Shown here one piece after another: positions 1 through 56,152 of a stretch of DNA of 56,152 nt; position 1 is the stretch's first letter, and each line of letters begins with the position of its first letter. The DNA comes from Aromatoleum toluolicum (GTDB lineage: Bacteria; Pseudomonadota; Gammaproteobacteria; Burkholderiales; Rhodocyclaceae), in NCBI RefSeq assembly GCF_012911005.2, contig NZ_WTVS01000037.1:1-56152 (forward strand). The letters run 5' to 3'. The translations under genes and the position numbers were made by a program. Under the pieces are notes generated by a model that saw nothing but the letters and a program-made list of their open reading frames with translations, made no database searches and had not been told where the DNA came from.

Positions 1-637
1 AAAAGCCTGATTTTTCGCGGGTTCCCGGCTTGTGTTTCTTCGGGGTTCAGGCAAGCTACCTTGGAGCCTCGGGGCGGGGTTTGGGGGCCGGAACAGGCCC
101 CCAAGGTGTTGCAGTTGCTCTTGCCCCGCAGGGGCACAAGCTCCCCTGCTCCCCGTCGATTACCCACATGGCCAGCGGAGCGCGGGGCCGGCTTTTGCAT
201 CCCACCATCTACCTCGTCGCCTCGGCGTCCAGGGGCACGCAGGACGGGCGCGGTCAAGGGAGAAACCGGAGGCCGCACGCGGAGCGCAGCCCGAAGGGCG
301 AGCACCGAACGGGTGAGGATTTCAGGGCGCAGCCCGGCCCTTGACCGGAGAAGCCCGGCCGGAGGGCACCATGACGACGAATAAAGGCGCGAGGTAGTGG
401 TGGGGTGCGGCCCCGCGCGTAGCGGATTCAGCGCACCAGCGCCGGCACACCACGGATCAGATCCACAGCCTGAACTTTCGCGCGCGAAAGTTCCTCGATG
501 CGGCCTTCAGGCCGGGCAAGCGGAGCGCGCAGCGCCGGCACGGCGCGGAGGCGTCAGGGATTGACGCCCGAAGGGGCGAGACGCCGCAGGCGGCTCGATG
601 CGCAGCACGAAAGCCCGGCCCCGCAGGGGAGACGCCC
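1..637. repeat. 637-bp long repeat, copy 1 (window start)
   Basis: Nearly identical to 52191-52827 and 55516-56152. Compared with copy 3 I see one difference (A instead of G near position 498), and compared with copy 2 one more (T instead of C near 472). No convincing gene: the overlapping reading frames lack protein-like composition. It is rich in hairpins: TTGGGGGCC/GGCCCCCAA with a 6-nt loop near 88-112, GCCTGA/TCAGGC near the left end, a long-range CGGTCAAGGG (251-260)/CCCTTGACCG (338-347), and the dispersed palindrome at 473-492. In the other two copies the left edge abuts a promoter that reads leftward. Confidence 0.95.
473..492. repeat. Dispersed palindrome, perfect 20 bp (in long repeat copy 1)
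   Basis: Perfect inverted repeat AACTTTCGCG/CGCGAAAGTT containing the core CTTTCGCGCGCGAAAG. First site of the family found every 1-5 kb in this window. It is intergenic here, inside the 637-bp repeat. Confidence 0.9.
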
Positions 638-642
638 AGGGG

Positions 643-1290
643 TCACGCTTGCGCCTCGATCTGCCCATGCACAGCAGCACGCAACGACTCCAGCGCATCC
701 AGGAACCGCTCGGCCGCAACGTCAGCCGCCCACGGCTCCCACGGCCGACAACCGTAGATTTCAGCCAGCGGATCGACATCAAGCACCGGATGCACGATGC
801 CCAGGACATCACGCACTTCATGAGCTGCCCAGCCAATGCAATGCACAGCCTCGGAAGCGGCCGCCACCGAGTCGGCCCGCTTGTGGACGGCGTGCGCTGC
901 CGGCGACCAAGCGCGCAGCTCGTACCGTTCCGAAACCGCAGCCATCAGGCGAGACGAAACAGCACGGAAGGAAAGGCCCAGCACGTCCTTCAACGGAGAA
1001 ATGCAATCGAACCCAAGGAAACCTTCCTCGGCGTCGTGTAGAAGCTCCAGGAGCGCGTCAGAGGCCGGCAAAGGGGTGTCGCTCCACAGCCGGCGCAAAG
1101 CGAGCACCAGGAGCGAATGCTGGGCCACAGAGAGGGGCAGGGGCCATGATGATTCCCCACCCCAGCGGTACGTCCTCGCCAAACGCAAGGCAAGGTCACT
1201 GTCGAGCCACGCGCCGGGATCGGGATTGATGAGGTCGAGGCGACGGCCAGAAGGAAGCCGAACCCACGCGCGCGCCTTTGCCTGCGTCAT
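643..1290 (-). CDS. HD-domain phosphohydrolase (YfbR-like)
   Basis: 215 aa. The HD metal-binding pattern is visible: His in VAQHSLLV (about residue 58), the HD pair in LLHDAEE (85-86), and a later acidic helix KRADSVAAASEA. This matches the small YfbR/YedJ-like metal-dependent phosphohydrolases (5'-deoxynucleotidase type) common on phages and plasmids. Substrate is not known from sequence; a nucleotide is likely. It is the last gene of a leftward chain: its ATG overlaps the stop of the retropepsin gene by 4 nt (ATGA), which implies translational coupling. Its stop is 6 bp from the long repeat. Family assignment is fairly sure, function inferred. Confidence 0.8.
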   Translation of the reverse strand: MTQAKARAWVRLPSGRRLDLINPDPGAWLDSDLALRLARTYRWGGESSWPLPLSVAQHSLLVLALRRLWSDTPLPASDALLELLHDAEEGFLGFDCISPLKDVLGLSFRAVSSRLMAAVSERYELRAWSPAAHAVHKRADSVAAASEAVHCIGWAAHEVRDVLGIVHPVLDVDPLAEIYGCRPWEPWAADVAAERFLDALESLRAAVHGQIEAQA

Positions 1291-1814
1291 CGGCCGCCTC
1301 GCAAGATCATGAAGCCGCCCGAATAGGCGATCTGGAAGCGGTTGAGCACGTCCATCCCCAGCAGCGGAGCGGAAAGGCGCTCCAGGACGGCGATAGCCGC
1401 ACCCTCAACGGCGAAGGGGCCGACGATCACCGTGTTGGCCGCAGTGATGCCACCACGTTCACGGCCTGCGGCCGTGTCAAAGGATGTTGCGCGGCCAGCG
1501 CGGATGCCAGCATTGCGGGCGAGCTTGACCGGCAGCGTCGTGAAGCGCGCTCCGGTGTCCACCATGAAGACCACGGGAAAGCCGTTGACGGCCCCGGCGA
1601 TGTAGTAGTGGCCGTCCGCAGCGCGCGGGATGGAGTAGTCCCCATTGCCCAGGCGCTGCGCCGGCTTGACCATCACGGGAGAGGCCGCCGCAACGTCTAG
1701 CTGGTCGCCGGGGTAGCTCTGGCCGTCATAGACGATGTATTCGCGCTGCTGCGCGTGCGATGTTCCAATGGCAAGGCAGGCCATCAGTGCCACAAGGGCG
1801 CGAGTAGCGTTCAT
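1287..1814 (-). CDS. Secreted retropepsin-like aspartic protease
   Basis: About 175 aa from the ATG at 1814, chosen because it gives a clean signal peptide (MNATRALVALMACLAIGTSHA) and a 4-nt ATGA overlap with the upstream gene. The longer frame has a non-protein-like N-terminus. The single-domain clan AA signature is present: FMVDTGA with the catalytic Asp near residue 86, then a second-half hydrophobic-Gly motif LLGMDVLNRF near the end. It resembles the TIGR02281-type bacterial retropepsins, which act as dimers in the periplasm. Target unknown. A second, membrane-anchored member (2988-3806) is encoded three genes upstream in the same transcription unit. Confidence 0.75.
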   Translation of the reverse strand: MNATRALVALMACLAIGTSHAQQREYIVYDGQSYPGDQLDVAAASPVMVKPAQRLGNGDYSIPRAADGHYYIAGAVNGFPVVFMVDTGARFTTLPVKLARNAGIRAGRATSFDTAAGRERGGITAANTVIVGPFAVEGAAIAVLERLSAPLLGMDVLNRFQIAYSGGFMILRGGR

Positions 1815-2212
1815 TGCCAACTCCAGCGATAGAAGCCAGTCAAGTGCGCGAAAATAGCGGCGTTCGCGGCACTGGCCAGCCAGGTGAAAAACAGAAAGGA
1901 AGCCTTCCGCGACTTGTGGCGGAAGGCATGTTGACCAATCAAGGCACCGGGCCAGCCGCATAGCAGCGCGATCCAGTGCAAAGACTTTTCAGACCAGCGC
2001 CAACGGTCAGCGACGGCCGCTGATTTGTCGAGGCCGTAGGCCAGAAAGGCCAAGTTGCTCATGAGCGCATAGGCCCAAGCGTAGTGAGGCCGGATACGCC
2101 CGGCGATGCTGGCGACAATTACGCCCCCAAGGAACACCGTGCCCAGCGCAAAAGCGGCCCAGCGATGGGCGATCCAAAAGCGATCCGCCAGTGACAGGCC
2201 CGGCGCGTTCAT
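1811..2212 (-). CDS. DUF1294 membrane protein
   Basis: 133 aa with four hydrophobic segments. The middle carries the DUF1294 signature: YGLDKSAA, then RWSEKSLHWIALLCGWPGA, then QHAFRHKSRKASF. Members are small inner-membrane proteins of unknown function, often fused to cold-shock domains; no such fusion here. Start and stop overlap both neighbours by 4 nt (ATGA), so it is co-translated with the two flanking secreted proteins. Function cannot be given. Confidence 0.8.
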   Translation of the reverse strand: MNAPGLSLADRFWIAHRWAAFALGTVFLGGVIVASIAGRIRPHYAWAYALMSNLAFLAYGLDKSAAVADRWRWSEKSLHWIALLCGWPGALIGQHAFRHKSRKASFLFFTWLASAANAAIFAHLTGFYRWSWQ

Positions 2213-2961: not shown

Positions 2962-2987
2962 GTTTTCCTCCTTGTTGTTCTTGATGT

Positions 2988-3806: not shown

Positions 3807-3815
3807 GGCCAGCTT

Positions 3816-4871: not shown

Positions 4872-4874
4872 GGT

Positions 4875-5150: not shown

Positions 5151-5165
5151 GGAAATCTCCGTGTG

Positions 5166-9504: not shown

Positions 9505-9520
9505 CTTTCGCGCGCGAAAG
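9505..9520. repeat. Dispersed palindrome, 16-bp core
   Basis: CTTTCGCGCGCGAAAG, perfect core without symmetric flanks. It lies in the 30-bp gap directly after the stop codon of the Fic gene and before the membrane protein gene. Confidence 0.9.
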
Positions 9521-12549: not shown

Positions 12550-12815
12550 CACCCCTCCTGCTTTCGCGCGCGAAAGCCGGGCTTGGCCAGCATCCAGCGA
12601 TAAATGCCCAGCAGGCTTGTGGCAGTGAAAGCCACCTGCATGAAGATAAGGCCCGGCGCGTCGGTCATGACGCCGAAGCCGATCCAGCAGACATTCGAGG
12701 CTAGGAAAGACACGAACCCCCAGCCCGACAAACGGTTGTTGAGGGCCAGCAGCAAGGCCCCCAGCACCCCAAACGCGCAGCCGATCCATTGCAGGTAGAA
12801 GGCATCCATGCGCAC
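12549..12815 (-). CDS. Small PnuC/SWEET-like membrane protein
   Basis: 88 aa with three hydrophobic segments (LQWIGCAFGVLGALLLAL, GFVSFLASNVCWIGFGVMTD, LIFMQVAFTATSLLGIYRWM). The pattern NNRLSGWGF...SN..WI and FTATSLLGIYRW is typical of small plasmid/phage proteins related to one half of PnuC transporters; a substrate is not evident. The last residues (PGFRARKQEG) are encoded by the dispersed palindrome, so the palindrome forms the C-terminus. Ends 1 nt into the next gene. Confidence 0.6.
   Translation of the reverse strand: MRMDAFYLQWIGCAFGVLGALLLALNNRLSGWGFVSFLASNVCWIGFGVMTDAPGLIFMQVAFTATSLLGIYRWMLAKPGFRARKQEG
12560..12577. repeat. Dispersed palindrome, perfect 18 bp
   Basis: GCTTTCGCG/CGCGAAAGC. 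It lies in the last codons of the small membrane protein gene, encoding FRARK. Confidence 0.9.
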
Positions 12816-13621: not shown

Positions 13622-13951
13622 TCATTTCTCATGCTGAGAGGCTGTTGCGAAGCACATCCGCCCAAGGTGGCCGTGGTAATGAGAATCAGGAGTAGTTTTT
13701 TCATCGGTTGCCCTTTCAGGGGAAAGTTGGTTGTTGATTTCTTCCAGCAGCTCCCGGCACACTGAATGCACCCGCTGACGCGAGACGCCGACGTGGCGCG
13801 CGACGGTTGCCTGCCGGTAGCCTTTGAGGAACACTTCTTCAGCGATGCGGTAAGATTCGGACGAAAGACCCAGCCGCCGCGCTGCTTTCACGAAGACAGC
13901 ACGCGACACATGGCCACACGCTGCGGAAACAGTCTTGAATATCTGGCTCAT
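13622..13951 (-). CDS. korA: TrfB/KorA-type transcriptional repressor
   Basis: About 109 aa. The helix-turn-helix GYRQATVARHVGVSRQRVHSVCRELLEEI closely matches the TrfB/KorA family of plasmid global repressors, and the preceding FVKAARRLGLSSESYRIAEEVFLKG is the family's N-terminal helix region. The His-rich tail is not typical. The ATG at 13951 has AGGGG but almost no spacing; an upstream TTG at 14005 is a less likely alternative. The operator-like TTGTC/GACAA site in the divergent promoter region suggests self-regulation. Likely targets are the sites sharing GTCAATAG at 11194, 52174 and 55497 (inference). Confidence 0.75.
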   Translation of the reverse strand: MSQIFKTVSAACGHVSRAVFVKAARRLGLSSESYRIAEEVFLKGYRQATVARHVGVSRQRVHSVCRELLEEINNQLSPERATDEKTTPDSHYHGHLGRMCFATASQHEK

Positions 13952-13982
13952 CCCCTTGCACCGTAAGGGTTTTGAGCGTATT

Positions 13983-14012
13983 TTGTCAATAGACAAGATG
14001 CGCAAATTCTAT
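13983..14012. promoter_or_regulatory. Divergent promoter with operator-like TTGTC-AATA-GACAA
   Basis: The 14-bp site at 13983-13996 contains the half-site GTCAATAG seen in the ssb and DUF3560 promoters. For the leftward korA-like gene, -35 TTACAA and -10 TAGAAT (complement of 14006-14011) are 18 bp apart, so the site would lie just after the start point. For the rightward gene, TTGTCA (13983-13988) and TTCTAT (14007-14012) are 18 bp apart, so the same site would cover the -35. One protein could shut both. Confidence 0.55.
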
Positions 14013-14624: not shown

Positions 14625-17600
14625 TTACTTGCTGCCGTTGTTGATCTGAACCGAGGCGGCCGTTTCCCGCTTCATGTTGTCGTTCAGCTTTTCGCCGTCT
14701 GCCGTACCGTCGCCGCCAGTCAGCTTGTCCCAAGCCTTCTGAACGGTGTCCTTGCCGTCGCGGATCATGTTGTCCTCGTTGACGGCTGCGGGATTGGCCC
14801 GCCCAGCGCCTACAGCCTTGTCCGGGCTGGCCCAGGCATTCACGTTCTCGTCCAAGGCCCCAGCACGCGCCGGGATGCTGCCCTTGTTCTTCGGGTCGAG
14901 CTGGCCCTGTACGTCCCCTCTGGATTCCGCAATGATCGGAGGCGCAGAGGTATCGACCTTGAGCGGAGCGGTTCCGCCGTAGCCGGTCTGTGCCACCTTC
15001 TTCTTGTGGACGCCCTGGATGTCCTGCGGGATGCCGGCGCGATCCTTGGCGGATTGCTTCTCCAGCTCGCCCTTCGTGGTCGGCAGTTTTTCGCCTGCGA
15101 AAGTCTGCTGCGGCATGGTGGTAGCTTGTTGAACCATGCCCTTCTCGCTCACGTAGTCCTGCACCATGTCCATGATCCGGTCTTCGGATTGGTTGGCGAA
15201 ACGCATGGCGGTCATGCCATTGCGCGCGGCCACCTTCTCGAACAGATACGGATCGGCCATCAGATCCTTGTGAGTCGTGAAGCTGTTGCTGTCGCTACGG
15301 TTGGCGCGGTCGCCAGTACCGAACTCACGGCGGTCAGAGACATCACGCACGCGGGAAACTTCATCCACGTTTGTGAGGGCTGCATCGCGGCCGTGGCGGT
15401 CGTTTTGGGCCGATTGGTTGCCCGTCCCGGCCTGCTCGGTTCGTGAGCCGCGTTCAGCAAACGTGCGCTCGGTGCGCGCGGCTTCCTGGTTGCCATGAAC
15501 CGTATCCACGCCCCGATCCCGGCCGTGCTCGGCCGTGTAGGTCTTCGCGCCGTTGTACCCCAGGCCCGCGTTGATGAGGCCGCCCGAAGGCTGGGCACCA
15601 CCCTTGCCGCCCCGGTAGTTCTTCAGAGCTTGGTCGATCTGTTGCTGGTTCGCGCCGCCCTGCTTCATGGCGTCGGCAATGCGCTTTTCCTCGCGCGGAT
15701 CAGGCGCACCGCCTGCACCGCCAGCACCAGGCGCACCGCCGCCGTTGGGGTTCCCACGGCCAACACCCAAATTCATGTGGAGCTGGTCATTGGCACCGGC
15801 CGCCGTGCGGAAGTGCGAACCCTCACGGAAGTTGCGATCCAAGTTCTGGCCGGTTGAGTGCTGGCCACCATACCCACCCTCGCTCCCGCGAGCCGCCACC
15901 ACACCCGTATTCTGATATTGACCACGGGTTGTATCGTGCCCCTTCACGTCCGTGAGGCTGGAGCTGTCGCCGTGCCGGCGCGCCAGTTGATCCCCGGTCG
16001 ATGTGATGTCGGTACGATGCGCTTCCTGGTTGCGGCCGGCTTCCAGTCGGTGATCCATGTTCATCTGCGTCAGCATCCGGTTTTGGAGCTGTTGCAAGGC
16101 AACCGCGCCGTTCGCGGCCATCGTGGCCGTCGAGCCATTGCCCCGACCGATGGTTGCCCCGCCGCCTTGCAGGCCGATGTTGCTGTCGTACTTGTTCATC
16201 GAGGTCGTGTTGACCGATGCGGTATCAAGTCCAGCTTGGCCCATGCTGACATTGCCGCTGGCATTGCTTGCGCCCACCGCCGCCCCGGCAGAGGCAAAGC
16301 CGGTCATCATCCGGTCGGCAACACCCATGAAACCGCCCTGCCCCAGCTTGATGATGGCCCCGGCGATGAATGGCACCAGGACAACCATGTAGCCGATGGC
16401 CGCCTGCTCGTTGGTCAGCGTGGCGTCGAAAGCATCGGTGAGCTGGAACGGCACACCGGCCGCCAGCTCCAGCGCGCGCGCCTTGTAGCGCAAGTGCATG
16501 AGCGACAGGTGGTTGATGACGGCAAACAAGATTGGCCACAGGCCGATCCAGGCCAGCGACATCATGTAGCCCGCAATGATCTTCTTTGCCCCCTCGGTCG
16601 AGCTGACAACCATCAGCACCACAACAACCGGGAACAGACCGTAGATGATTGCCTCGATCCAGTTGCGCATGTGGGGCAGCGTCTCTTGCGCCAGCAGGCT
16701 CAAGGTGCTGTTGGAGCCGTCCGCTTGCCGCGCCGCTTGGGCAGCGCCGGCCAGGGCATTAACCTCGGCCACCCGCGCAGGATCGTTCAGCAGCGCCGGC
16801 AGCTCGGTGCCGGCCTCCTTCCAGATGTTGTTGAACATCGCCTGCTTCATCGCGTCTGAGGCGTTGCTGGAGTTGTTCAGAATCCAGTCGTAGGACGTGC
16901 CCACCGTCGAAACGAACATGCTGGTAGCGATAGCATCACTGCTTGCCCGCGTGAAAGCCTGCTTGCCGTAGAAGGCTTGGCCAGCCGTTACCGCGTCGTT
17001 GACCTTCTCCTTCAGGATGGCCGCAACATTGGTGCAGGTATCGGTGGTAGGCGCATTCGTCAGGGTGTTGTAGGTGACGAAGCGGGCTGGACTCGTGTTG
17101 TTGAAAATCACGTTCCAGGTATCGGTGCCGCCCACAATCTGCTGCGGGGTGATTTCACCGTCTTTCACGTCGTACAGCGTGCATTCCTTGATGAACTGCA
17201 TCAGGTCGGAGCGCAAGCTGGGGTCGCGGATCGTCGCGTTATTGACTTGTTTCAGGATGCGGTGCCCGAAGCCCACATCCCCTTTTTGCAGGCCCAGGTC
17301 TTCAGGGACACCGAAGACCGTTTCATAGGTGTTGGTCAGCGCGCCGAACACCAGATTGGTCGTCTGCGCAGTGACGGCCAGGGCAAAGGGCACGTTATCA
17401 ACCACGCGCGGCGGCTCCAGCCCTGTCTTGTCTGTCAAGGCAACGCGCGCGATCGGCAGATTGAGCACGGTCACAAAGGCCAGGGCGTGGATAAACCACT
17501 TCGCCATTTCGAGCTGCTTGTTCATGTAGCCGAACATGCCGATTGCGATGGCGAACAGGAAAACCAGCTTCAGCAAGCCAGCGAAGCCAGCGCCGGCCAT

Positions 17601-19917: not shown

Positions 19918-20280
19918 TTACTCCACGGAAATTGGCGGGGTGCCGTCGAGGCAGTAGTTGAGCTGGGTCTTCAGGATCGCGTCGGTGCGGCCTTGTGGGG
20001 TATCCACGTCCTTCTTGGTGAACACCATTTCAAGGCGCTTGCAGTCGGCGCGGCTGAAAGACTTGATGACCTTCGCAGTCACCAGCAGCGGCCCGGTCGA
20101 GCGGAATTGGCGCGTGAAGTGCTCGGCCACCTCCCCTTCCATGACGCCGCTGGAGCTGCCGTTGCGGATCGCAGCGGCCAGCACGTCGTGTTGCCGGGTA
20201 TAGACGGTTGGCCCAGCGAGGCTTTCGCGCGCGAAAGTCGAGCAGGCCAGCAGAATGAGGGCGATAGAGAGAGTTTTCAT
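19918..20280 (-). CDS. Exported protein between traN-like gene and traF
   Basis: 120 aa with signal peptide. The C-region of the signal reads TFARESLAG, where TFARES is encoded by the dispersed palindrome and S-L-A gives an acceptable -3/-1 cleavage site. The mature part has two Cys (RADCKRLEM, LNYCLDG) and a mixed alpha/beta pattern. No family recognised. It is embedded in the F-type operon with ATGA coupling to the upstream gene, so a periplasmic role in mating-pair formation is likely. Confidence 0.65.
   Translation of the reverse strand: MKTLSIALILLACSTFARESLAGPTVYTRQHDVLAAAIRNGSSSGVMEGEVAEHFTRQFRSTGPLLVTAKVIKSFSRADCKRLEMVFTKKDVDTPQGRTDAILKTQLNYCLDGTPPISVE
20222..20237. repeat. Dispersed palindrome, 16-bp core
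   Basis: CTTTCGCGCGCGAAAG inside the signal-peptide coding region of the gene at 19918-20280, encoding FARES. Confidence 0.9.
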
Positions 20281-22816: not shown

Positions 22817-23589
22817 TGGTTCCCCCTGATCTGGCGAAGGTAGCGAGACGCCACGGCTTCAAACTGCGGCGCGCGGCGCACAATCTCGTCCAGGGCGTAG
22901 TCCAGCGAAACGTCACCGGCCACTGCCACAAAGTTGTCAGGGAGGGCGCAGCCCTCGTTGTCCACTTGGTCGATGGTTGCGGCCTTGGCCAGCACCATCG
23001 TGGGAACAGCCTTGACCTTGTACTTGGTGAAGGCGTTGGGGTTCACCAGGACGTTGCCGCCCTGCTCTCCCAGCTCCTTGATGGCCAGCGCCGTATCCTT
23101 CAGCGAGTTGTTCTTGAAACCGCGCAGCACCACAGAAGCCCCCACCCGGTTGGCTTGGCTGACGATCCGCTTGAGTGATTCGGCCGGCATCGTGAAGCTG
23201 GCGAAAATCATCAGGTCATCCATCTTGCGGGCCTGGGCCTTTTGCTCGTATTGCTTGGCCAGCGCCTCGATGTCGATCCCGGCGCGCTCCGGCGTCGGCA
23301 CGTTGGGGAACACGTTGGCGGCGTTCTTGGTCGCGGGGTTGTTTGGATCGAACATCTGCTTGCGCTCACGATCTACGCGGCGCATTTCCCGGTCGATGTC
23401 GGCCGAGTTGGGCATAGCGCCCTTCTTGGCCTTCGAGGCGGGGTTGTTCGGGTCAAACATCTGCTTGCGCTCAAGCTCGATGCGTTGGCGTTCTTGGTCG
23501 AGCTGGGATGCGGTCGGCGTGCTCTGCGCCACGCTTTCGCGGGCGAAAGCGGCCAGCAGCATCAGCCCGATGACAGTTTTCTTGTTCAT
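22813..23589 (-). CDS. trbC: TrbC, F-type pilin assembly protein
   Basis: 258 aa from the ATG at 23589, which overlaps the traU stop by one base. The signal peptide contains FARES, encoded by a variant of the dispersed palindrome, then VAQ as cleavage site. Two copies of ERKQMFDPNNPA followed by S/T-K lie in the charged N-terminal region. The conserved TrbC core follows: MIFASFTMPAESLKRIV, VLRGFKNNSLKDT, NPNAFTKYKVKAVPTMVL. TrbC is a periplasmic protein working with TraW in pilus assembly. The ATGA overlap to the traN-like gene continues the coupled operon. Confidence 0.93.
   Translation of the reverse strand: MNKKTVIGLMLLAAFARESVAQSTPTASQLDQERQRIELERKQMFDPNNPASKAKKGAMPNSADIDREMRRVDRERKQMFDPNNPATKNAANVFPNVPTPERAGIDIEALAKQYEQKAQARKMDDLMIFASFTMPAESLKRIVSQANRVGASVVLRGFKNNSLKDTALAIKELGEQGGNVLVNPNAFTKYKVKAVPTMVLAKAATIDQVDNEGCALPDNFVAVAGDVSLDYALDEIVRRAPQFEAVASRYLRQIRGNQ
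23534..23549. repeat. Dispersed palindrome, one-mismatch variant
   Basis: CTTTCGCGGGCGAAAG with symmetric CG flanks (23532-23551). It lies in the trbC signal-peptide region and encodes FARES despite the central change. Confidence 0.85.
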
Positions 23590-24590
23590 CAGAATCCCAC
23601 TCCCAGGCAGCAGTTTTTCTTGCGGAAAATCATGTAGGCGAAGTCTTCGCCGGCATACGGGTAGCTCTTGCCAGCGCCCCAAATCGCGGTCGTGCGGCCA
23701 TAGGGTTGGCAGCAGCGCCCGTTGATCTTTTCCGTCTGCGGGATCGGGTAGAGCATCTGGTACTTGTATTGGGTCTTGTCCATCACCGGCTCGGGATAGA
23801 TGCCGCACAAGCCGTCAGCGCCAGAGGTGCCCCACATCAGGAATTCGCGGTGCAGCTTGGCCGTCATGCGCTGCACCAGCAGCGAACTGGCTTGTACGTG
23901 TGAGACGTGGGCCTGCACATGGCCGTTGAAGGGGTAGATCGAACCCTGGCAGCCGGCGCACCAGAAAAGCGCGTTACTGCCAAAGCCAGCCGATGACAAC
24001 ACGCAGTCGCCGGCACACGCGGCTTGGGCAATGGGGTTGCCGAACAGGAAAGTTTCCGGGTTCAGCAGCATGGTCAGCTCGTCGTCGTTCCAAGTCGGAT
24101 CGACTTCGGTGATGTAGGCCACGTCAAAGGAACCCGTCTCCAGGCACGGGTTATCCAGGATCACCTCCAGCCAATAAAGGATCGGATCGGCGTACCAATG
24201 AACCTGATAGTTGGACTGCTTGGTGTTGTCCTGCTGCAAACGGATCTCGCCTTCCGGGGCACGGATACCGGGATCGAGCTTGATGCCTCCCAGCGAGACA
24301 AAGCAGTACGGGGTGCGGGTCACATCCACGCGCCGCGCCGGCTCCCAAAAGCCGGTCTTGATGCCGATGCGCAGCGGGTTGGTGCAGGTGCAGAGGAAGC
24401 CGTCCGGGTTGCCGGTGTCCTCCTGGCCCATCGTCATGATCGGCGTGCCGCCCAACGTCAGCGGGAACAGGCAGCTCCAGCAAATATCGGTGATGGGGTT
24501 GGCAAACTTGCCCTGGCACACGCCGGCCATACTTTCGCGCGCGAAAGTCGCCGCGAGCACCATGAAAGCCATTACAAGCCAGCGTTTCAT
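23589..24590 (-). CDS. traU: TraU, F-type mating-pair protein
   Basis: 333 aa. Signal peptide MKRWLVMAFMVLAA followed by TFARESMAG (palindrome-encoded), then the strongly conserved TraU start VCQGKFANPITDICWSCLFP and Cys-rich body (FLCTCTNP, CAGDCVLSSAGFGSN, FWCAGCQGSIYPFNGHV, NGRCCQPYGRT). TraU is a periplasmic protein needed for DNA transfer and pilus number. Many Cys imply dependence on the encoded thiol oxidoreductases. Start overlaps the traW stop by ATGA. Confidence 0.96.
   Translation of the reverse strand: MKRWLVMAFMVLAATFARESMAGVCQGKFANPITDICWSCLFPLTLGGTPIMTMGQEDTGNPDGFLCTCTNPLRIGIKTGFWEPARRVDVTRTPYCFVSLGGIKLDPGIRAPEGEIRLQQDNTKQSNYQVHWYADPILYWLEVILDNPCLETGSFDVAYITEVDPTWNDDELTMLLNPETFLFGNPIAQAACAGDCVLSSAGFGSNALFWCAGCQGSIYPFNGHVQAHVSHVQASSLLVQRMTAKLHREFLMWGTSGADGLCGIYPEPVMDKTQYKYQMLYPIPQTEKINGRCCQPYGRTTAIWGAGKSYPYAGEDFAYMIFRKKNCCLGVGF
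24531..24548. repeat. Dispersed palindrome, perfect 18 bp
   Basis: ACTTTCGCG/CGCGAAAGT in the traU signal-peptide region, encoding TFARES. It is only 1 kb from the trbC site, the closest pair in the window. Confidence 0.9.
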
Positions 24591-28767: not shown

Positions 28768-29418
28768 TTATTCGCTGTCCGGGATGACGTTGCCGGGGCG
28801 CATGATTCCGTTCAGCAGCTCGGTGGCTTGCTCGTTGCTCATGCGGTCTTGACGGACGCCGATAGACTCCATCCCGTTGTCAGCGGGAGGCGTTGGCTGC
28901 TGCCCCAGCACGCCAGGGCTTTGCCGTTGCTGGCCAGCGCCGGCCGTTTGCGGCTGCGCAGCCTGGGCCGTCACATTCGACGGGGCGCGTACCGGCCGGT
29001 AGTTGTCCTGGATGCGGCGGCGGTTGTGCTCGATCAGCCAGCGGCCGGAATCGACCGGCAGGTACACGTAGGACTGGTCGTGCAGATCGCCATCGGTGTC
29101 TTCCCACGGGGCGAACCAGACGCGAAGCAGGCGCGGTGCGCTGCGGATCGGCGTGCCCGAGTAGATGGGCTTGGTCATCACGTTGCTGCCGGCTTTCGCC
29201 TGCGAAAGTTCCACCGGAGCCTCGCCGCGCGCATTCACGCGCTGGCCCGGCAGGTTCTTCGCCTGGGCATTGGCGTAGATGCCGCTCATCGACTCGCACA
29301 AGATGCCGTCCGGGGCCTTGCACGCGAATTCGGATTTCGCATCAAAGCCAGACATGCTGCTGCAACCGGATAGGGCCACCACGGCCCCGATGCCAAAGGT
29401 CAAGGCCAGTGCCTTCAT
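28768..29418 (-). CDS. traV: TraV, outer-membrane lipoprotein
   Basis: 216 aa from the ATG at 29418 (GGGAGG upstream; overlap with the stop of the small lipoprotein gene). Lipobox VALSGC gives a lipidated Cys, followed by SSMSGFDAKSEFACKAPDGILC, the conserved TraV start with paired Cys. TraV is the VirB7-like lipoprotein that links TraK to TraB. A variant of the dispersed palindrome encodes LSQAKA near residue 71, in a variable stretch. Confidence 0.93.
   Translation of the reverse strand: MKALALTFGIGAVVALSGCSSMSGFDAKSEFACKAPDGILCESMSGIYANAQAKNLPGQRVNARGEAPVELSQAKAGSNVMTKPIYSGTPIRSAPRLLRVWFAPWEDTDGDLHDQSYVYLPVDSGRWLIEHNRRRIQDNYRPVRAPSNVTAQAAQPQTAGAGQQRQSPGVLGQQPTPPADNGMESIGVRQDRMSNEQATELLNGIMRPGNVIPDSE
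29193..29208. repeat. Dispersed palindrome, variant
   Basis: CTTTCGCCTGCGAAAG, family arms with an altered centre. It lies inside traV in a variable region; the reading frame used (LSQAKA) differs from the FARES frame. Confidence 0.75.
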
Positions 29419-33661: not shown

Positions 33662-34045
33662 TCACTTCGGTTTGCTGACAGGCTTGCATTCGTACTGAAT
33701 CGCGGGCTTCTTCCGCTTCTTCTTCAGTGGCTTTTTCTTGGCCGGGACTTTCGCGTGCGAAAGTTCTTCGGGCGGCTGGATGGATTGAGGCGCAGGCATG
33801 ACCGGCTCTTGGACAGCAGGCGGCGGTGGAGGCGGCACGTACAGATGCTTGATGGAGCGTTCCGGGCAGTCTTCCCCGTCGCAGAACACAAACTTGGTGT
33901 CGCGGGGCACGCCGAACTGCACCACGTCGGAGAGACGATCCAGGGGGTTGGGCTGGTTCAGTGACTGCGCATTGGCAGCAGTGACGCCAGCAGCAGCCAG
34001 CGCAAAGACGATAGAAATGCGAAACGGTTTGGCTGGCAACGCCAT
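33662..34045 (-). CDS. Exported Pro/Lys-rich protein in tra operon
   Basis: 127 aa from the ATG at 34045. Signal peptide ends near AANA; the mature part starts QSLNQPNPLDRLSDVVQFG, has one CDGEDC pair, a seven-Pro run and a Lys-rich tail (KKKPLKKKRKKPA). A variant of the dispersed palindrome encodes LSHAKV in the disordered tail. Family not recognised; it lies between the transglycosylase and pilin genes, 1 nt after the former. Confidence 0.65.
   Translation of the reverse strand: MALPAKPFRISIVFALAAAGVTAANAQSLNQPNPLDRLSDVVQFGVPRDTKFVFCDGEDCPERSIKHLYVPPPPPPAVQEPVMPAPQSIQPPEELSHAKVPAKKKPLKKKRKKPAIQYECKPVSKPK
33747..33764. repeat. Dispersed palindrome, one-mismatch variant
   Basis: ACTTTCGCGTGCGAAAGT, family arms intact with a single central change. 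It lies in the disordered tail of the exported protein gene. Confidence 0.85.
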
Positions 34046-38180: not shown

Positions 38181-38204
38181 GCCAACTTTCGCGCGCGAAA
38201 GTTG
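38181..38204. repeat. Dispersed palindrome, perfect 24 bp
   Basis: Longest member: arms CCAACTTTCGCG and CGCGAAAGTTGG. Intergenic, between the relaxase gene end (38243) and the RHH gene; the 140-bp gap 38102-38242 holds nothing else that I can identify. Confidence 0.92.
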
Positions 38205-41591: not shown

Positions 41592-43589
41592 CTATAGCGC
41601 ATCCGCCAGCGGGTTGGGCTTCTTGCCCTGGCCGGCTGATTTCGCATCTGCATCATCTTTCGCGCGCGAAACCTTCTCGGCTGGCTTGATGATTTCGCCG
41701 GTTGCCTTGTCGATCACATCGCCATTTTCGTTGCGCATAACCTCCACCGTAGCCGGCGCGTCCATATCGTCGTCATCCAACATGTCGCCTTGCTCCGGCG
41801 CGGCCGGCTGCTGAACTTCAGCGGCGGACGGAGCGGGTGCCGGCGCTGCGGCCGCCGTGGTCGGCTTGAAGCTGATCGCAAAGCCGTCGCGCTCGATGAA
41901 GCCGTTGGCCTGTTTCTCTGTCGGCACGTAACCATACTTGACGCGGGCAATGGGATAGTCGCCCGGAACCAGCAGATAGCCGGTCATATCGGGCAACGTC
42001 AAAATCTCCGATGTCAGCACAAGGTCGCGCATCTGTCGGCGCGCCATCACGCTCACGCCGTCACGCTGCGAGCTGAGGCCGTAGCTCAATGTTTCATCCT
42101 TTTCATCCACCTCGGCCTGTCCCATCAATTCGGCCAACAGCTTCGCCGCAGCTCCATCCGTCACACGCAGCAGCAGCTTCGTTTGGCACCCGGAAATGAT
42201 CGTCTTGGCCAGATCGTGCCCGTAGATTTCGTAGAGCTGGCTGAAGTCCTGCACGCCCAGCACCATGCACAAACCGTACTTCCGTGTGTTCGTCAGAGCC
42301 AGCTTCAGGATGTCGAGTTTTTGGAGTGTCGGCAGCTCGTCAATGCAAAACCAAAGCCGCTCGCGGTGGATCGGCTCCAAGTCAAGCACGGCCTTGATTG
42401 CCGTGTCGATCCACAACGACAGAACGGGCTTCAATGCCTCGCGCATCGCTTCCCGTGCTGTGATGAACATCCATGAATCGCCTTCTTCATGTACCCATTT
42501 TCGGATGGAGAACGATTCGCCCTCATCTGGCAAAAACCGGAAGGCTTCAAGCTGGTTCTGAACAGTCATCTTGAGTGACATCCCCGTGCGCTCGGTCGTG
42601 GGATCAACATAGGTTGCGCCCGCTGTCCCCTGCAACAATGCGTGCATGGCGTCCAGGTTGCTCTTGGCGATAGCGTTGTAGAGGTCGCGGTTCGTGCGGC
42701 GGCCCTCGCGCCCCAATACTGCAATCACGTCCTTTAGCACCATCCGGCCCGCAAGCGCCCAAAATGGATCGGACTCGGCCGGATCGGGGATCAGGCCGTT
42801 CGCCATGTTGTCGAAGTGGTAGTCCTTGGCGATTTCGTTCCAGATGTTCCAGTTCGGGCTTCTGGAGTCCAGCGGGTTCATCAGGATGTCTTTGCCTTCA
42901 CGGTAGAACGCCTGGGTGAACTCGCCGGTCGGGTCATACACGATCATCCGCTTGCCACGCGCCCGCACCTGTTTCATGAGTGCGAAAAACTGCTGTGACT
43001 TACCCGTACCCTGCGCGCCGGCAAACAGCGTATGCAGCGTCTCTGACTTCACGCGCATGGGCACGCCCGCAATCTCATAAGGGCTTGCCTCGTCGCGGTG
43101 TCGGATCAGTCGCGCAAGCTCCTTTCCTTCCACCAGCTTGGCCCCGCGCAGTTGGTTGTCCTGCATCCGTTCACGGCCATAGCCCCACCAGTACAAAGAG
43201 ATCAGAAACACCACACCGATGGAAGTCAGCAAGCCGAACATGCCGCCGTTGCGCAGCTTTCGCCAAGCATCTTCGGCCATGTCGTCGGTCAGCAAGGCAA
43301 CCTCGGAAACTTCCATCTTGCGCAGCTCGCCGTTGACGTTCAGCTCCATCTTTCCGGCCGTCATGTAGAGCGCATCCCGCGTGTGCGCCAAGACGTTCCG
43401 CTCCAGCGCGTACTTTTCGTCTGCGGTAGTCGCATTCCAGAAGTACGCCGTCGTGACTGCCAGACCGGCCAAGATGGAAATCAGCACAACCGTCCAGATG
43501 GCCACCACGAACAGCCTGGCTTGGTGCATCCACAACTCGGCCCCACGGGAGAAGCTACCGGCGCTTCCCTTTTCCTCTCTCTTTGCCAT
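41592..43589 (-). CDS. traD: Type IV coupling protein (TraD/TrwB family)
   Basis: 665 aa. Two N-terminal membrane segments (27-50 and 118-134), Walker A GAQGTGKS (191-198) with ALMKQVRARGKRMIVYDPTG after it, Walker B region LWFCIDELPTLQKLD, and KYGLCMVLGVQDFSQL. It is the hexameric ATPase that hands the relaxosome to the secretion channel. The acidic/Ala-rich tail contains a 14-bp version of the dispersed palindrome (encoding SRAKD). It is 11 nt upstream of the DsbD-like gene. Confidence 0.95.
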   Translation of the reverse strand: MAKREEKGSAGSFSRGAELWMHQARLFVVAIWTVVLISILAGLAVTTAYFWNATTADEKYALERNVLAHTRDALYMTAGKMELNVNGELRKMEVSEVALLTDDMAEDAWRKLRNGGMFGLLTSIGVVFLISLYWWGYGRERMQDNQLRGAKLVEGKELARLIRHRDEASPYEIAGVPMRVKSETLHTLFAGAQGTGKSQQFFALMKQVRARGKRMIVYDPTGEFTQAFYREGKDILMNPLDSRSPNWNIWNEIAKDYHFDNMANGLIPDPAESDPFWALAGRMVLKDVIAVLGREGRRTNRDLYNAIAKSNLDAMHALLQGTAGATYVDPTTERTGMSLKMTVQNQLEAFRFLPDEGESFSIRKWVHEEGDSWMFITAREAMREALKPVLSLWIDTAIKAVLDLEPIHRERLWFCIDELPTLQKLDILKLALTNTRKYGLCMVLGVQDFSQLYEIYGHDLAKTIISGCQTKLLLRVTDGAAAKLLAELMGQAEVDEKDETLSYGLSSQRDGVSVMARRQMRDLVLTSEILTLPDMTGYLLVPGDYPIARVKYGYVPTEKQANGFIERDGFAISFKPTTAAAAPAPAPSAAEVQQPAAPEQGDMLDDDDMDAPATVEVMRNENGDVIDKATGEIIKPAEKVSRAKDDADAKSAGQGKKPNPLADAL
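41658..41671. repeat. Dispersed palindrome, 14-bp core
   Basis: TTTCGCGCGCGAAA (left C but not right G retained). It lies in the coding sequence of the traD C-terminal tail. Confidence 0.8.
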
Positions 43590-45415: not shown

Positions 45416-46013
45416 TGCAGCCATTCAGAATTCAAGGCAACCGACACACGCCACGGAACGGGCGCGGTTGCGTGACAAGGAAAGGCGAAGGCGACGGACG
45501 AAGGAAGTCGCCCTCGCCTTTCGCACTTTCCGGCCCTGCGTGACGCGGCACAAGCGCGGAACGAAACAGCAGGACGGAAAGCGGGAGAAGGCGCAAGGCG
45601 AACCGCTGCGAAGCAAGGGAAGCCGTATTGCGCCTCCCCGACTTTCGCGTGCGAAAGTTGTACAAAACCGGCAGCGGAGCGGACGGGCCGGGACGGCCGC
45701 CGAATGGCGGCAGCGGGAACCGAGACGGCCCGGCGACACGAAGCAGAATGGCAACGGTAGCAGCCTACGGGGCGAGAAGTGGAAAGCCTAGAAGCGATAG
45801 CGAATAGGCGATCACCAACTGCGAGCCAGGCCGCGCATTGCGTGGCCTGCGTCTTTCGCGGCGATCCAGATCAAGAGCCGCGAGAAAGGCATACGGCAAG
45901 GATGGTGGTCGGCCGAAGGCTGGCCACCATCGAGCCAGTGCAAGCGGAGAGGTTGCGGCCTGAGTTCCGGCGAAGCTGGAACGAAAGACCGGCAAGGAAG
46001 CGGAGCGGGAAAA
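45416..46013. other. Gene-poor, hairpin-rich stretch
   Basis: About 600 bp with no convincing gene. Contains a strong hairpin (45480-45495 / 45507-45522, 16-bp arms with one mismatch) that could end the small gene before it, the dispersed palindrome at 45641-45658, and several GAA-loop hairpins, for example GATGGTGG...CCACCATC near 45902-45931 and AGGCCGCGC/GCGTGGCCT near 45829-45849. Confidence 0.6.
45641..45658. repeat. Dispersed palindrome, one-mismatch variant
   Basis: ACTTTCGCGTGCGAAAGT, identical in form to the site at 33747. Intergenic. Confidence 0.85.
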
Positions 46014-48461: not shown

Positions 48462-48481
48462 AGCTTTCGCGCGCGAAAGCT
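48462..48481. repeat. Dispersed palindrome, perfect 20 bp
   Basis: AGCTTTCGCG/CGCGAAAGCT, intergenic, 20 bp before copy B of the 125-bp repeat. Confidence 0.9.
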
Positions 48482-52148: not shown

Positions 52149-52183
52149 TCTACCCGTCAAACTATTGACCGTCAATAGTTTGT
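52149..52183 (-). promoter_or_regulatory. Promoter with 23-bp operator for the DUF3560 unit
   Basis: Palindrome with 11-bp arms AAACTATTGAC / GTCAATAGTTT and one central base (52161-52183). On the minus strand -35 TTGACG (complement of 52172-52177) lies within it and -10 TAGAAT (complement of 52149-52154) follows after 17 bp: a near-consensus promoter that a protein bound to the palindrome would block. The leader to the ATG is about 100 nt. Confidence 0.85.
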
Positions 52184-52190
52184 GAGAGAA

Positions 52191-52827
52191 AAAAGCCTGA
52201 TTTTTCGCGGGTTCCCGGCTTGTGTTTCTTCGGGGTTCAGGCAAGCTACCTTGGAGCCTCGGGGCGGGGTTTGGGGGCCGGAACAGGCCCCCAAGGTGTT
52301 GCAGTTGCTCTTGCCCCGCAGGGGCACAAGCTCCCCTGCTCCCCGTCGATTACCCACATGGCCAGCGGAGCGCGGGGCCGGCTTTTGCATCCCACCATCT
52401 ACCTCGTCGCCTCGGCGTCCAGGGGCACGCAGGACGGGCGCGGTCAAGGGAGAAACCGGAGGCCGCACGCGGAGCGCAGCCCGAAGGGCGAGCACCGAAC
52501 GGGTGAGGATTTCAGGGCGCAGCCCGGCCCTTGACCGGAGAAGCCCGGCCGGAGGGCACCATGACGACGAATAAAGGCGCGAGGTAGTGGTGGGGTGCGG
52601 CCCCGCGCGTAGCGGATTCAGCGCACCAGCGCCGGCACACCACGGATCAGATCCACAGCCCGAACTTTCGCGCGCGAAAGTTCCTCGGTGCGGCCTTCAG
52701 GCCGGGCAAGCGGAGCGCGCAGCGCCGGCACGGCGCGGAGGCGTCAGGGATTGACGCCCGAAGGGGCGAGACGCCGCAGGCGGCTCGATGCGCAGCACGA
52801 AAGCCCGGCCCCGCAGGGGAGACGCCC
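52191..52827. repeat. 637-bp long repeat, copy 2 (internal)
   Basis: Same sequence as 1-637 and 55516-56152 with one or two base differences. Homology to copy 3 continues leftward through the promoter palindrome (from 52161), with one mismatch just outside the 637 bp. To the right it ends at the stop codon of the small zinc-ribbon gene. No gene inside. Confidence 0.95.
52663..52682. repeat. Dispersed palindrome, perfect 20 bp (long repeat copy 2)
   Basis: AACTTTCGCG/CGCGAAAGTT, same site as 473-492 in copy 1. Confidence 0.9.
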
Positions 52828-53042: not shown

Positions 53043-53139
53043 GCAGGGACGGCGTAGCCGTGCCGGCCAAGCCCAGCAGGATGCCGCGCGGCGGGGCGCA
53101 GCCCCAAGAGCGCCCGCCCGCGCAGGCGGGCGGTGGTCA

Positions 53140-53370: not shown

Positions 53371-53477
53371 GGTCATGTCCTTGGGTTGGATGGTCGAGGG
53401 TGAGGCTGACGCGCGGGCCTGCTCGCCCTGGTGCGCGTCAGCCGGGTGCAGCGCCGGCCAGCGGCCGGCGCTCCGAT

Positions 53478-53786: not shown

Positions 53787-53855
53787 GGTGTCGTCCTTCG
53801 TGTAGTGGTGGGAGGGAGGCCCGGCCGCGCGTCCAGCGTGGCCGGGCGGCTCGGG

Positions 53856-54683: not shown

Positions 54684-54765
54684 GGTCATTTCTCCAGTGA
54701 GTTGATGATGGTCTAGGGATCAAAGGGCCGATAAGCCCGGCCTGCTCGCCGGGCCTGTCGGTTGT

Positions 54766-54945
54766 TCAGGTCTGCGGCGCGGATTCGCGCAACATCCCTT
54801 GAATCTTGGCTTGGAGGTCTTCCAAGCGGGCCACCGCCTCGGCGGTGCCTTCTTCGTTCGGGCAGTAGTCTTTTTTGTCGTCGATGAGGTTTTTCACTGC
54901 ATATTCCAGATCGAAAAGCTCATCACGGGTAAAGCTGCTGGCCAT
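54766..54945 (-). CDS. Small acidic protein downstream of ssb
   Basis: 59 aa. It starts 2 nt after the ssb stop and reads MASSFTRDELFDLEYAVKNL, then DDKKDYCPNEEGTAEAV and an amphipathic helix LEDLQAKIQGML. Composition and spacing support a real gene co-transcribed with ssb. No family recognised. Confidence 0.65.
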   Translation of the reverse strand: MASSFTRDELFDLEYAVKNLIDDKKDYCPNEEGTAEAVARLEDLQAKIQGMLRESAPQT

Positions 54946-54947
54946 GA

Positions 54948-55388
54948 TTAGCGGCGGCCTTGACCGGCTTGCTCGGTGCTGTCGTAGTCGCGCATCCAGT
55001 CGTCGTGCTCGGCGTTGCCGGGGCCTTGCTGCTGCTGGCCAGCGTCACCGCCTGCACGGTTGCCGCTGGGACGGCCCAGGTACTGCACGCGCTCGGCCTC
55101 GAAGTTGAAACCGCCCTTGCGTTCGGCCTGCTTGTACCAGCTACGAATCCGGCCCATCACCGCCACGGTGGAACCCTTCTTCAGAAACTTGGCGTCGTTC
55201 TCGGCTTGCTTGCCGTAGGTCGTCACCGGGATGAAGTCGGTTTCTTCGTGCTTCTTGCCGTCGCGGTCGAAATAGACGTTATCCACGGCGACAGTGAAGG
55301 TCACGGAAGGCGTGCCGCTGGGCGTGTAGCGCAATTCCACGTCCTTGGTCACGTTGCCCACGATGGTGAAAGTGTTGATGCTGGCCAT
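54948..55388 (-). CDS. ssb: Single-stranded DNA-binding protein
   Basis: 146 aa from the ATG at 55388 (AAGGAG, about 8 nt). Complete OB fold: MASINTFTIVGNVTKDVELR, VTFTVAVDNVYFDRDGKKHE, TDFIPVTTYGKQAEN, GSTVAVMGRIRSW and GFNFEAERVQYLGRP. The C-terminal tail lacks the usual DDDIPF tip and ends EQAGQGRR, with an internal acidic HDDWMRDYD instead. Plasmid SSBs coat the incoming strand and counter SOS induction. Promoter with operator lies 85-118 bp upstream. Confidence 0.95.
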   Translation of the reverse strand: MASINTFTIVGNVTKDVELRYTPSGTPSVTFTVAVDNVYFDRDGKKHEETDFIPVTTYGKQAENDAKFLKKGSTVAVMGRIRSWYKQAERKGGFNFEAERVQYLGRPSGNRAGGDAGQQQQGPGNAEHDDWMRDYDSTEQAGQGRR

Positions 55389-55472
55389 GATCGAAGCTCC
55401 TTTTTTGCTCGGTTGATGGTGGTCTTTGCTGCCTGGTGCAGAACCGTTCTTTGTTCCTACACCATGAGTCAT

Positions 55473-55506
55473 ATTGTACCATAAAACTATTGACCGTCAA
55501 TAGTTT
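55473..55506 (-). promoter_or_regulatory. Promoter with 23-bp operator for ssb
   Basis: Same palindrome as at 52161-52183 (arms AAACTATTGAC / GTCAATAGTTT, here 55484-55506). Minus-strand -35 TTGACG (complement of 55495-55500) and -10 TACAAT (complement of 55473-55478), 16 bp apart. ssb and the DUF3560 gene are thus co-regulated from duplicated upstream DNA. Confidence 0.85.
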
Positions 55507-55515
55507 GTGAGAGAG

Positions 55516-56152
55516 AAAAGCCTGATTTTTCGCGGGTTCCCGGCTTGTGTTTCTTCGGGGTTCAGGCAAGCTACCTTGGAGCCTCGGGGCGGGGTTTGGG
55601 GGCCGGAACAGGCCCCCAAGGTGTTGCAGTTGCTCTTGCCCCGCAGGGGCACAAGCTCCCCTGCTCCCCGTCGATTACCCACATGGCCAGCGGAGCGCGG
55701 GGCCGGCTTTTGCATCCCACCATCTACCTCGTCGCCTCGGCGTCCAGGGGCACGCAGGACGGGCGCGGTCAAGGGAGAAACCGGAGGCCGCACGCGGAGC
55801 GCAGCCCGAAGGGCGAGCACCGAACGGGTGAGGATTTCAGGGCGCAGCCCGGCCCTTGACCGGAGAAGCCCGGCCGGAGGGCACCATGACGACGAATAAA
55901 GGCGCGAGGTAGTGGTGGGGTGCGGCCCCGCGCGTAGCGGATTCAGCGCACCAGCGCCGGCACACCACGGATCAGATCCACAGCCTGAACTTTCGCGCGC
56001 GAAAGTTCCTCGGTGCGGCCTTCAGGCCGGGCAAGCGGAGCGCGCAGCGCCGGCACGGCGCGGAGGCGTCAGGGATTGACGCCCGAAGGGGCGAGACGCC
56101 GCAGGCGGCTCGATGCGCAGCACGAAAGCCCGGCCCCGCAGGGGAGACGCCC
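55516..56152. repeat. 637-bp long repeat, copy 3 (window end)
   Basis: Reaches exactly to the last base of the window, as copy 1 starts at the first. If the molecule is circular, copies 1 and 3 are one locus and the sequence runs on at position 638. Differs from copy 1 by G instead of A near 56013. Confidence 0.95.
55988..56007. repeat. Dispersed palindrome, perfect 20 bp (long repeat copy 3)
   Basis: AACTTTCGCG/CGCGAAAGTT, same site as 473-492 in copy 1. Confidence 0.9.

What the first reader, a model, noticed from the sequence alone, without database searches (positions are those of the whole stretch)
473..56007. A 16-24-bp palindrome (CTTTCGCGCGCGAAAG) is spread at near-regular spacing around the whole plasmid
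Sites at 473, 5761, 9505, 12560, 15089, 20222, 23534, 24531, 29193, 33747, 38181, 41658, 45641, 48462, 52663 and 55988; neighbouring sites are 1.0 to 5.3 kb apart, most 2.5-4.7 kb, with no empty stretch. Ten are perfect over the 16-bp core and the rest keep both outer arms. Chance cannot explain even two perfect 16-mers in 56 kb. They occur in genes and between genes, and flanks are often symmetric beyond the core (up to 24 bp), so the arms change together. Even coverage suggests a function for the whole molecule: a ParB/KorB-like or nucleoid-protein binding site, a packaging or segregation mark, a modification site, or a hairpin used on the single strand in transfer (a palindrome works on either strand).
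Basis: seen in the sequence. Interest (0 to 1): 0.92.

Follow-up and report, generated by a model that had tools for sequence, protein, structure and literature searches.

The report
Plasmid-wide array of ParB/KorB binding sites
A conjugative plasmid family carries the same short palindrome about every 3.6 kb, even inside its transfer genes; it looks like the docking site of the plasmid's own partition/repressor protein, in a form that resembles but is not the known KorB system of IncP plasmids.

Summary
All 16 listed sites exist (coordinates off by 0-5 bases) and share TTTCGC-NN-GCGAAA; 10 are perfect 16-mers. Chance and codon use do not explain them. Window spacing is far more even than random (CV 0.29 against 0.91). 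The window is 56 kb of a circular 92.5-kb replicon; a 29-kb stretch outside the window, mostly inserted DNA, has no site. The sites are most likely operators and centromere sites of the plasmid's own ParB/KorB-like protein (contig 88,091-89,383), which sits with a ParA and a KorA-like repressor. Main evidence: the 12 closest ParB loci fetched all carry the motif, the other 68 do not. Sites survive at orthologous places where this ParB is present (10 of 11 and 11 of 13, repeated module left out) but mostly not in a plasmid with the same transfer genes and only a remote ParB (2 of 8). The central dinucleotide goes with the ParB recognition helix. A second palindrome covers the -35 box of five promoters, as a KorA operator might. 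This works like the RK2 KorB/KorA network but with another operator and regular spacing. No binding was tested.

The parts
475..490 (.). site, GC centre, perfect 16-mer; in a small doubtful ORF; 503 bp from the second palindrome at contig 92476, across the contig end
5763..5778 (.). site, GC centre, perfect; between genes (65 bp before the HAD-domain gene)
9505..9520 (.). site, GC centre, perfect; between genes
12561..12576 (.). site, GC centre, perfect; inside 3' end of a small gene
15088..15103 (.). site, CT centre; inside traG
20222..20237 (.). site, GC centre, perfect; inside 5' end of a small tra-region gene
23534..23549 (.). site, GG centre; inside 5' end of trbC
24532..24547 (.). site, GC centre, perfect; inside 5' end of traU
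29193..29208 (.). site, CT centre; inside traV
33748..33763 (.). site, GT centre; inside a small gene next to the pilin gene
38186..38201 (.). site, GC centre, perfect, 24-bp palindrome; just downstream of the mobF relaxase gene
41657..41672 (.). site, GC centre; inside 3' end of the TraD-like gene (type IV DNA-binding domain protein)
45642..45657 (.). site, GT centre; between genes
48464..48479 (.). site, GC centre, perfect; between genes (203 bp before radC)
52665..52680 (.). site, GC centre, perfect; in a small mapped ORF; 503 bp from the second palindrome at 52161
55990..56005 (.). site, GC centre, perfect; in a small mapped ORF; 503 bp from the second palindrome at 55486
52161..52179 (-). 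second palindrome ACTATTGACSGTCAATAGT over the -35 box of a likely minus-strand promoter (DUF3560 gene): candidate KorA-like operator
55486..55504 (-). second palindrome over the -35 box of a likely minus-strand promoter (ssb gene): candidate KorA-like operator
13622..14005 (-). second KorA/TrfB-like gene of the backbone (Pfam KORA, E 1.6e-7)

Best explanation
The palindrome (AC)TTTCGC-NN-GCGAAA(GT) is the recognition site of the plasmid's own ParB/KorB-like protein (430 aa, contig 88,091-89,383, outside the window). Inferred working: a ParB dimer binds the two TTTCGC half-sites through its helix-turn-helix, closes with CTP into a sliding clamp and spreads along the flanking DNA. At sites near promoters (70-503 bp from five promoters whose -35 box lies in the ACTATTGACSGTCAATAGT palindrome) the clamp meets the KorA-like repressor and shuts the promoter. 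The sites spread every 1-5 kb through the rest of the backbone, tra genes included, load clamps over the whole backbone for partition with ParA and for general silencing. Shown here: the sites, their statistics, conservation, co-occurrence with this ParB family and the par-operon context. Inferred: binding, CTP clamping, KorA locking, repression and partition.
For: Chance and codon use excluded. ParB-family rule: with an alignment of 8 ParBs, the 12 best of the 80 loci returned from genome contigs (32-100% identity; six of them over 93% identical) all have the motif in the fetched stretch, while 0 of the other 68 (1.14 Mb) do; 43 of those 68 hold the classical parS word GTTTCACGTGAAAC, which is in none of the 12. 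Massilia plasmids with a 35% identical ParB carry 18 and 13 sites. Natural experiment, with the repeated module at 475/52665/55990 left out: the B. savannae plasmid keeps a motif within 60 bp of the orthologous place at 10 of 11 alignable sites and the Denitratisoma plasmid at 11 of 13; the Mycetohabitans plasmid, with the same tra genes at 60-78% flank identity but only a remote ParB, at 2 of 8. Specificity: 10 of 10 ParBs aligned from GC-centre replicons have Glu two residues before the helix Trp ([GS]E[AG]W[VI]SKR); 0 of 5 from AT-centre ones do. Internal control: an IncP-1 segment on the same contig with its own KorB carries 5 RK2-type TTTAGCSGCTAAA words, none elsewhere on the contig, and lies in the stretch without TTTCGC sites. 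Fold: ParB_N domain and a GERRYR stretch (the ParB CTP motif, recalled); among the 50 listed fold hits the highest target-normalised TM is RK2 KorB in the KorA-DNA complex (8qa9_B, 0.76). Operon hyp-parA-parB-korA with a site before its first gene and one before korA. Invariant arms argue for sequence-specific protein binding.
Against: No binding or expression data. The KorB Pfam match is just under its cut-off (21.5 against 22.3 bits). ParA travels with ParB throughout, and a KorA-like gene nearly throughout, so co-occurrence alone cannot name the binder. The Mycetohabitans plasmid still has 4 motif copies. The B. savannae plasmid lacks the site upstream of the par operon, and only 1 of its 5 second palindromes (and 1 of 2 in Massilia H6) has a site within 510 bp. 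The GC-centre ParBs may share one ancestor, so the Glu/centre rule may reflect a single event; no tree was made.
Confidence: 0.82

Rival explanations
1. Another plasmid DNA-binding protein (the KorA-like repressor, the KfrA-like protein or HU) binds the sites; ParB only travels along.
For: A KorA-like match lies near parB in 11 of the 12 motif-bearing genome loci and in all 15 plasmids that have a full-length ParB homologue, the own one included.
Against: KfrA was not found in the fetched stretches of L112-L117, all with the motif; L117 (Halochromatium) has ParA, ParB and 4 motif copies but no KorA or KfrA match by tblastn (a divergent KorA could be missed). A separate palindrome over -35 boxes is the better KorA candidate. 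TTTCGC resembles the RK2 KorB half-site TTTAGC and the parS half-site TTTCAC.
Confidence: 0.08
2. ParB sites for partition only: a dispersed centromere without a role in gene control.
For: ParA-ParB operon; 8 window sites lie inside CDS, more than 10 kb from the five -35-palindrome promoters. In B. savannae most second palindromes have no site close by.
Against: On the own plasmid all five second palindromes have a site within 70-503 bp (one across the closed contig end), as do 39 of 42 in the eight close relatives and 8 of 8 in Denitratisoma (within 510 bp). A site lies between the par promoter and its first gene.
Confidence: 0.2
3. A hairpin used on the single strand during transfer, or a structural element.
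For: Palindrome; present in the transfer region.
Against: Arm letters are fixed: no compensated pair change in the own, Denitratisoma or B. savannae plasmid, and one single-arm change in the last. The two Massilia plasmids with the motif are typed as mobilizable with no mating-pair formation type given; their lack of tra genes was not tested otherwise.
Confidence: 0.02
4. A methylation/restriction mark, or a mobile palindromic repeat (REP-like).
For: A C5-methyltransferase gene is annotated on the relative pACP4.4; GCGCGC lies in 13 of 19 centres.
Against: 110 GCGCGC words in the window, and 6 of 19 sites lack it. Sites sit at fixed orthologous places over 60-92% flank identity, which a hopping repeat would not show.
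Confidence: 0.02

Closest known systems
KorB/OB and KorA/OA network of IncP-1 plasmids (RK2, R751)
   Same: ParB-family protein with ParA and KorA-like partners; many operators around a plasmid of about 60 kb (12 in RK2; PMC3199767, passages); KorA operators at promoters with KorB sites near or far; KorB slides as a CTP clamp to promoters up to 1.5 kb away (PMC11790492, abstract and Main section).
   Different: Operator TTTCGC-NN-GCGAAA, not TTTAGCSGCTAAA; candidate KorA-like operator ACTATTGACSGTCAATAGT over the -35 box, where RK2 KorA binds in the -10 region (PMC3199767, passage); gene order hyp-parA-parB-korA; 8 window sites inside CDS; evenly spaced (CV 0.3), whereas the 10 exact R751 words are not (CV 1.09).
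KorB of IncU plasmid RA3
   Same: KfrA of RA3 interacts with IncC and KorB (PMC7783346, abstract in the search listing), so the same set of partner proteins occurs.
   Different: Not compared by sequence here. PMC7414963: one passage search only, which showed no operator sequence.
Chromosomal ParB-parS and Noc-NBS
   Same: Same ParB_N/HTH fold; palindromic site; Noc sites are dispersed over a chromosome (recalled).
   Different: parS is GTTTCACGTGAAAC with no spacer between half-sites; here the half-sites are 2 bp apart, and one protein may serve both partition and promoters.

Membership tests
IncP-1 KorB (operator network) | ParB_N domain plus KorB DNA-binding domain | tested here: inconclusive
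   ParB_N 65.1 bits (cut-off 26.3); KorB 21.5 bits, below the 22.3 cut-off. AF2 model TMt 0.76 to 8qa9_B.
IncP-1 KorB (operator network) | operator TTTAGCSGCTAAA | tested here: not met
   0 in the 15 other plasmids compared; the 5 on the own contig all lie in the IncP-1 segment at 75-83 kb.
IncP-1 KorB (operator network) | about ten or more operators dispersed over the plasmid | tested here: met
   19 on the contig, 16 in the window.
IncP-1 KorB (operator network) | encoded with ParA/IncC and KorA partners | tested here: met
   P0002 and P0003.
IncP-1 KorB (operator network) | KorA-type operators on promoters with KorB sites close by | tested here: inconclusive
   Second palindrome on the -35 box of five promoters, 70-503 bp from a site; only 1 of 5 in B. 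savannae. KorA binding untested.
IncP-1 KorB (operator network) | CTP-dependent sliding clamp, repression and partition activity | not testable with these tools
   Only the GERRYR stretch is seen.
ParABS partition system | parA-parB operon with palindromic sites near it | tested here: met
   Own plasmid: a site 49 bp before the first gene of the operon and one 26 bp before korA. Each of the 12 motif-bearing genome loci has a site in the fetched stretch. B. savannae lacks the upstream one.

The most novel reading that the evidence does not exclude
The array is tuned for even coverage: ParB clamp-loading sites are kept every 3.6 kb on average, within CDS as well, so that sliding clamps reach every part of the backbone and form a plasmid-wide coat that silences and bundles it, while newly acquired cargo stays uncoated. 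Spacing itself would then be under selection, set by the sliding range of the clamp.
Probability: 0.3. Interest if true: 0.78.

Novelty: new variant of a known kind. Interest (0 to 1): 0.58.

Why it matters
It identifies the probable cis-sites of a ParB/KorB family for which the papers searched gave no binding site, on a betaproteobacterial conjugative plasmid family. It gives a testable specificity rule (a Glu at the start of the recognition helix goes with a GC centre) and an evenly spaced natural array in which the sliding range of a ParB clamp can be tested. It also gives a simple sequence marker for this backbone and for cargo inserted into it.

Tried and rejected
Hairpin, methylation and mobile-repeat readings were tested and disfavoured. 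Outer-flank symmetry was tested and is only modest. The Pfam KorB match is below its cut-off. An order-wide scan for further ParBs found a match in 29 of 399 genomes; of the 30 loci returned, 4 have the motif: L186 and L215 are the own plasmid seen twice, L187 (G298) has the same gene and site coordinates as the Massilia H6 plasmid already in hand, and L192 has one AT-centred copy. In one search the ORF picker took a wrong frame for L192 and L204; L192 was read separately, L204 was left.

Literature: no paper held the 14-mer TTTCGCGCGCGAAA. Of six further sequence words only TTCGCGCGCGAA matched, in two papers: PMC11429247 has it in cloning primers (passage); PMC10169843 was seen in the listing only. 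pAOVO01-type plasmids turned up in a description of pNA4_D without site analysis in the two passages seen (PMC6357080); PMC3692508 and PMC8142561 were seen in listings only. The listings showed no title or abstract reporting these sites; most of those papers were not opened, and subscription papers are not held.
Full report
CHECK OF THE OBSERVATION. The 16 sites are real. The general form is TTTCGC-NN-GCGAAA, mostly inside CTTTCGCNNGCGAAAG; on the own contig the centres are GC 13, GT 3, CT 2 and GG 1 of 19. A first-order Markov model of the window gives none at 0-1 mismatch in 200 runs, and synonymous-codon shuffles of 66 window CDS give 0.044 sites on average against 8 observed. In the whole genome all hits with 0-1 mismatch lie on the plasmid contigs C1, C220 and C240; at up to 2 mismatches three lie elsewhere. 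The control word (read backwards) has 9 hits at up to 2 mismatches against 39.

THE WINDOW. It is bases 1-56152 of contig C1, 92,504 bases. C220 has the window's length, its first 2000 bases and the same site positions. C240 is identical to C1 from 56,032 to the end and then runs 86 bases on into the start of C1, so the replicon is circular and the assembly holds it twice. The backbone is the pAOVO01/pALIDE201/pACP4.4 type, MOBF with an F-type transfer system. The circle holds 19 sites. A 29,153-bp stretch (58.9-88.0 kb) has none. In pACP4.4 the matching interval is 5,241 bp, so about 24 kb is inserted: IS1071 and mercury-resistance transposon DNA and an IncP-1 backbone segment identical to IncP-1 plasmids over the 8.5 kb compared. 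That segment has its own KorA, IncC, KorB and KfrA relatives and 5 RK2-type TTTAGCSGCTAAA words at 75.2-82.7 kb, found nowhere else on the contig. Two KorB-type systems thus sit on one molecule, each with its own operator word in its own DNA.

SPACING. Without any exclusion, CV is 0.30-0.34 with P < 1e-5 in pACP4.4, pAOVO01, the A. ebreus plasmid and the Denitratisoma plasmid (the last is a near-dimer; one unit alone gives 0.34, P 1e-5), and 0.44 and 0.53 with P 1e-4 and 1e-3 in pALIDE201 and the B. savannae plasmid. The Comamonas and Cupriavidus plasmids, with one or two gaps over 9 kb, give 0.62-0.63, P 0.02. In the own, Pandoraea and Diaphorobacter plasmids site-free gaps of 12-35 kb dominate and the test fails (CV 1.1-1.3); setting aside its one big gap gives CV 0.30 for the own. 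The two Massilia plasmids and the Herbaspirillum plasmid are not regular (CV 1.19, 1.86, 0.81), nor are the R751 OB words (10 exact, CV 1.09). Regularity is thus a property of this backbone, not of the ParB family.

CONSERVATION. Counted without the three sites of a repeated module (475, 52665, 55990), 16 of 16 sites have a motif at the orthologous place in each of 8 close relatives. In B. savannae it is 10 of 11 alignable sites, in Denitratisoma 11 of 13, often with a different centre (flank identity 60-92%). In the Mycetohabitans plasmid, which shares the tra genes but has only a remote ParB (31% over 93 aa), 2 of 8 remain (flanks 60-78%). On those 8 sites B. savannae keeps 8 (one shifted by 27 bp) and Denitratisoma 7. 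The two kept in Mycetohabitans lie in traG and traV and may be held by the protein sequence; that plasmid has two further copies at 44 and 46 kb, unexplained. The Massilia plasmids share almost no alignable flanks, so their sites arose or were kept independently of this backbone.

WHICH PROTEIN. The contig encodes ParB-like P0001 (ParB_N; weak KorB match), ParA P0002, KorA-like P0003 and P0004 and KfrA-like P0005. An 8-protein ParB alignment was used to scan genome contigs; 231 stretches encode a relative and the best 80 were returned. The 12 best carry TTTCGCNNGCGAAA in the fetched stretch, the other 68 do not; 43 of these 68 have GTTTCACGTGAAAC and none of the 12 does. ParA accompanies ParB in all 12, a KorA match in 11, a long KfrA match in 5 and a short one in L111. 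The Herbaspirillum plasmid (ParB 32%) has its own dispersed word TTTCGCATGCGAAA (10 AT plus 2 AC); Nitrogeniibacter (3), L115 (2), L117 (4) and G097 contig 35 (2) are AT-centred too. Recognition-helix starts: [GS]E[AG]W[VI]SKR in 10 of 10 aligned GC-centre ParBs; SPSW, SVPW, KAPW, TAAW and SKSW in the AT-centre ones. Near-identical loci L106-L109, L111 and L113 were not in the count of 10. In the AF2 model (residues 28-245 mostly near pLDDT 90) this helix starts at E155. Fold hits are ParB, Noc and KorB; among the 50 listed the highest TM by target length is RK2 KorB bound to KorA-OA (8qa9_B, 0.76). Half-site comparison (my reading): parS TTTCAC with 0 bp between halves, RK2 OB TTTAGC with 1 bp, here TTTCGC with 2 bp.

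REGULATORY LAYOUT. A second palindrome, ACTATTGACSGTCAATAGT, occurs 5 times on the contig (one copy with a base change). It is kept in the close relatives, Denitratisoma (8), B. savannae (5) and one Massilia plasmid (2), and absent in Mycetohabitans, Herbaspirillum, Nitrogeniibacter and Massilia WG5. Read by eye, it covers a TTGAC (once TTGAT) -35 box followed at 16-17 bp by TAGAAT or TACAAT in all five. A ParB-type site lies 503, 503, 70, 107 and 503 bp away (the last across the closed contig end). Within 510 bp the count is 39 of 42 in the eight close relatives and 8 of 8 in Denitratisoma, but 1 of 5 in B. savannae and 1 of 2 in Massilia H6. In RK2, KorA has seven sites near start points, KorB has 12 sites 39 to 2000 bp from start points (PMC3199767, passages), and KorB reaches promoters up to 1.5 kb away as a CTP clamp that KorA locks (PMC11790492, abstract and Main section). 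With 1.0-5.3 kb between sites, no base of the uninterrupted backbone is farther than about 2.6 kb from one.

ASSESSMENT. That the sites go with this ParB family is well supported by comparison. That ParB itself binds them is very likely. Repression together with the KorA-like protein is likely on the own plasmid and its close relatives, less clear in B. savannae. Even coating of the backbone as a selected function is a hypothesis resting on spacing alone. I file it as 'works like KorB/OB', but not as a member of the IncP-1 KorB operator family, because the operator test was not met.

Noticed in passing
contig G000:C1 75,000-83,000 (outside window; L003/L004): An IncP-1 backbone segment with its own KorA, IncC, KorB and KfrA relatives and 5 RK2-type KorB operator words is embedded in this MOBF/F-type plasmid, next to IS1071 and mercury-resistance transposon DNA: a cointegrate, or an assembly join.
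   Followed up: partly
contig C1 52162, 55487, 58813, 90782, 92476: Second repeated palindrome ACTATTGACSGTCAATAGT on -35 boxes; candidate operator of the KorA-like protein. Two forms of the word were not found in the papers searched.
   Followed up: partly
window 475, 52665, 55990: Three sites lie in near-identical repeated modules (site 503 bp from the second palindrome), so part of the array may have grown by duplication.
   Followed up: partly
NZ_LR778302.1 (Denitratisoma plasmid pI, W02): The record looks like a near-dimer: the order of site gaps repeats with an offset of about 66.8 kb.
   Followed up: no
NC_014723.1 44081 and 46437 (Mycetohabitans): Two 20-bp palindromes GTCTTTCGC-(AT/TT)-GCGAAAGAC remain in a plasmid without a close member of this ParB family.
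   Followed up: no
NZ_CP015372.1 1-1255 (Pandoraea plasmid): Second, diverged partial parA-parB stretch at the record start, beside the full operon elsewhere.
   Followed up: no
G000 contigs C1, C220, C240: The assembly holds the plasmid twice, once as C1 and once as C220 plus C240; C240's last 86 bases equal the start of C1.
   Followed up: yes
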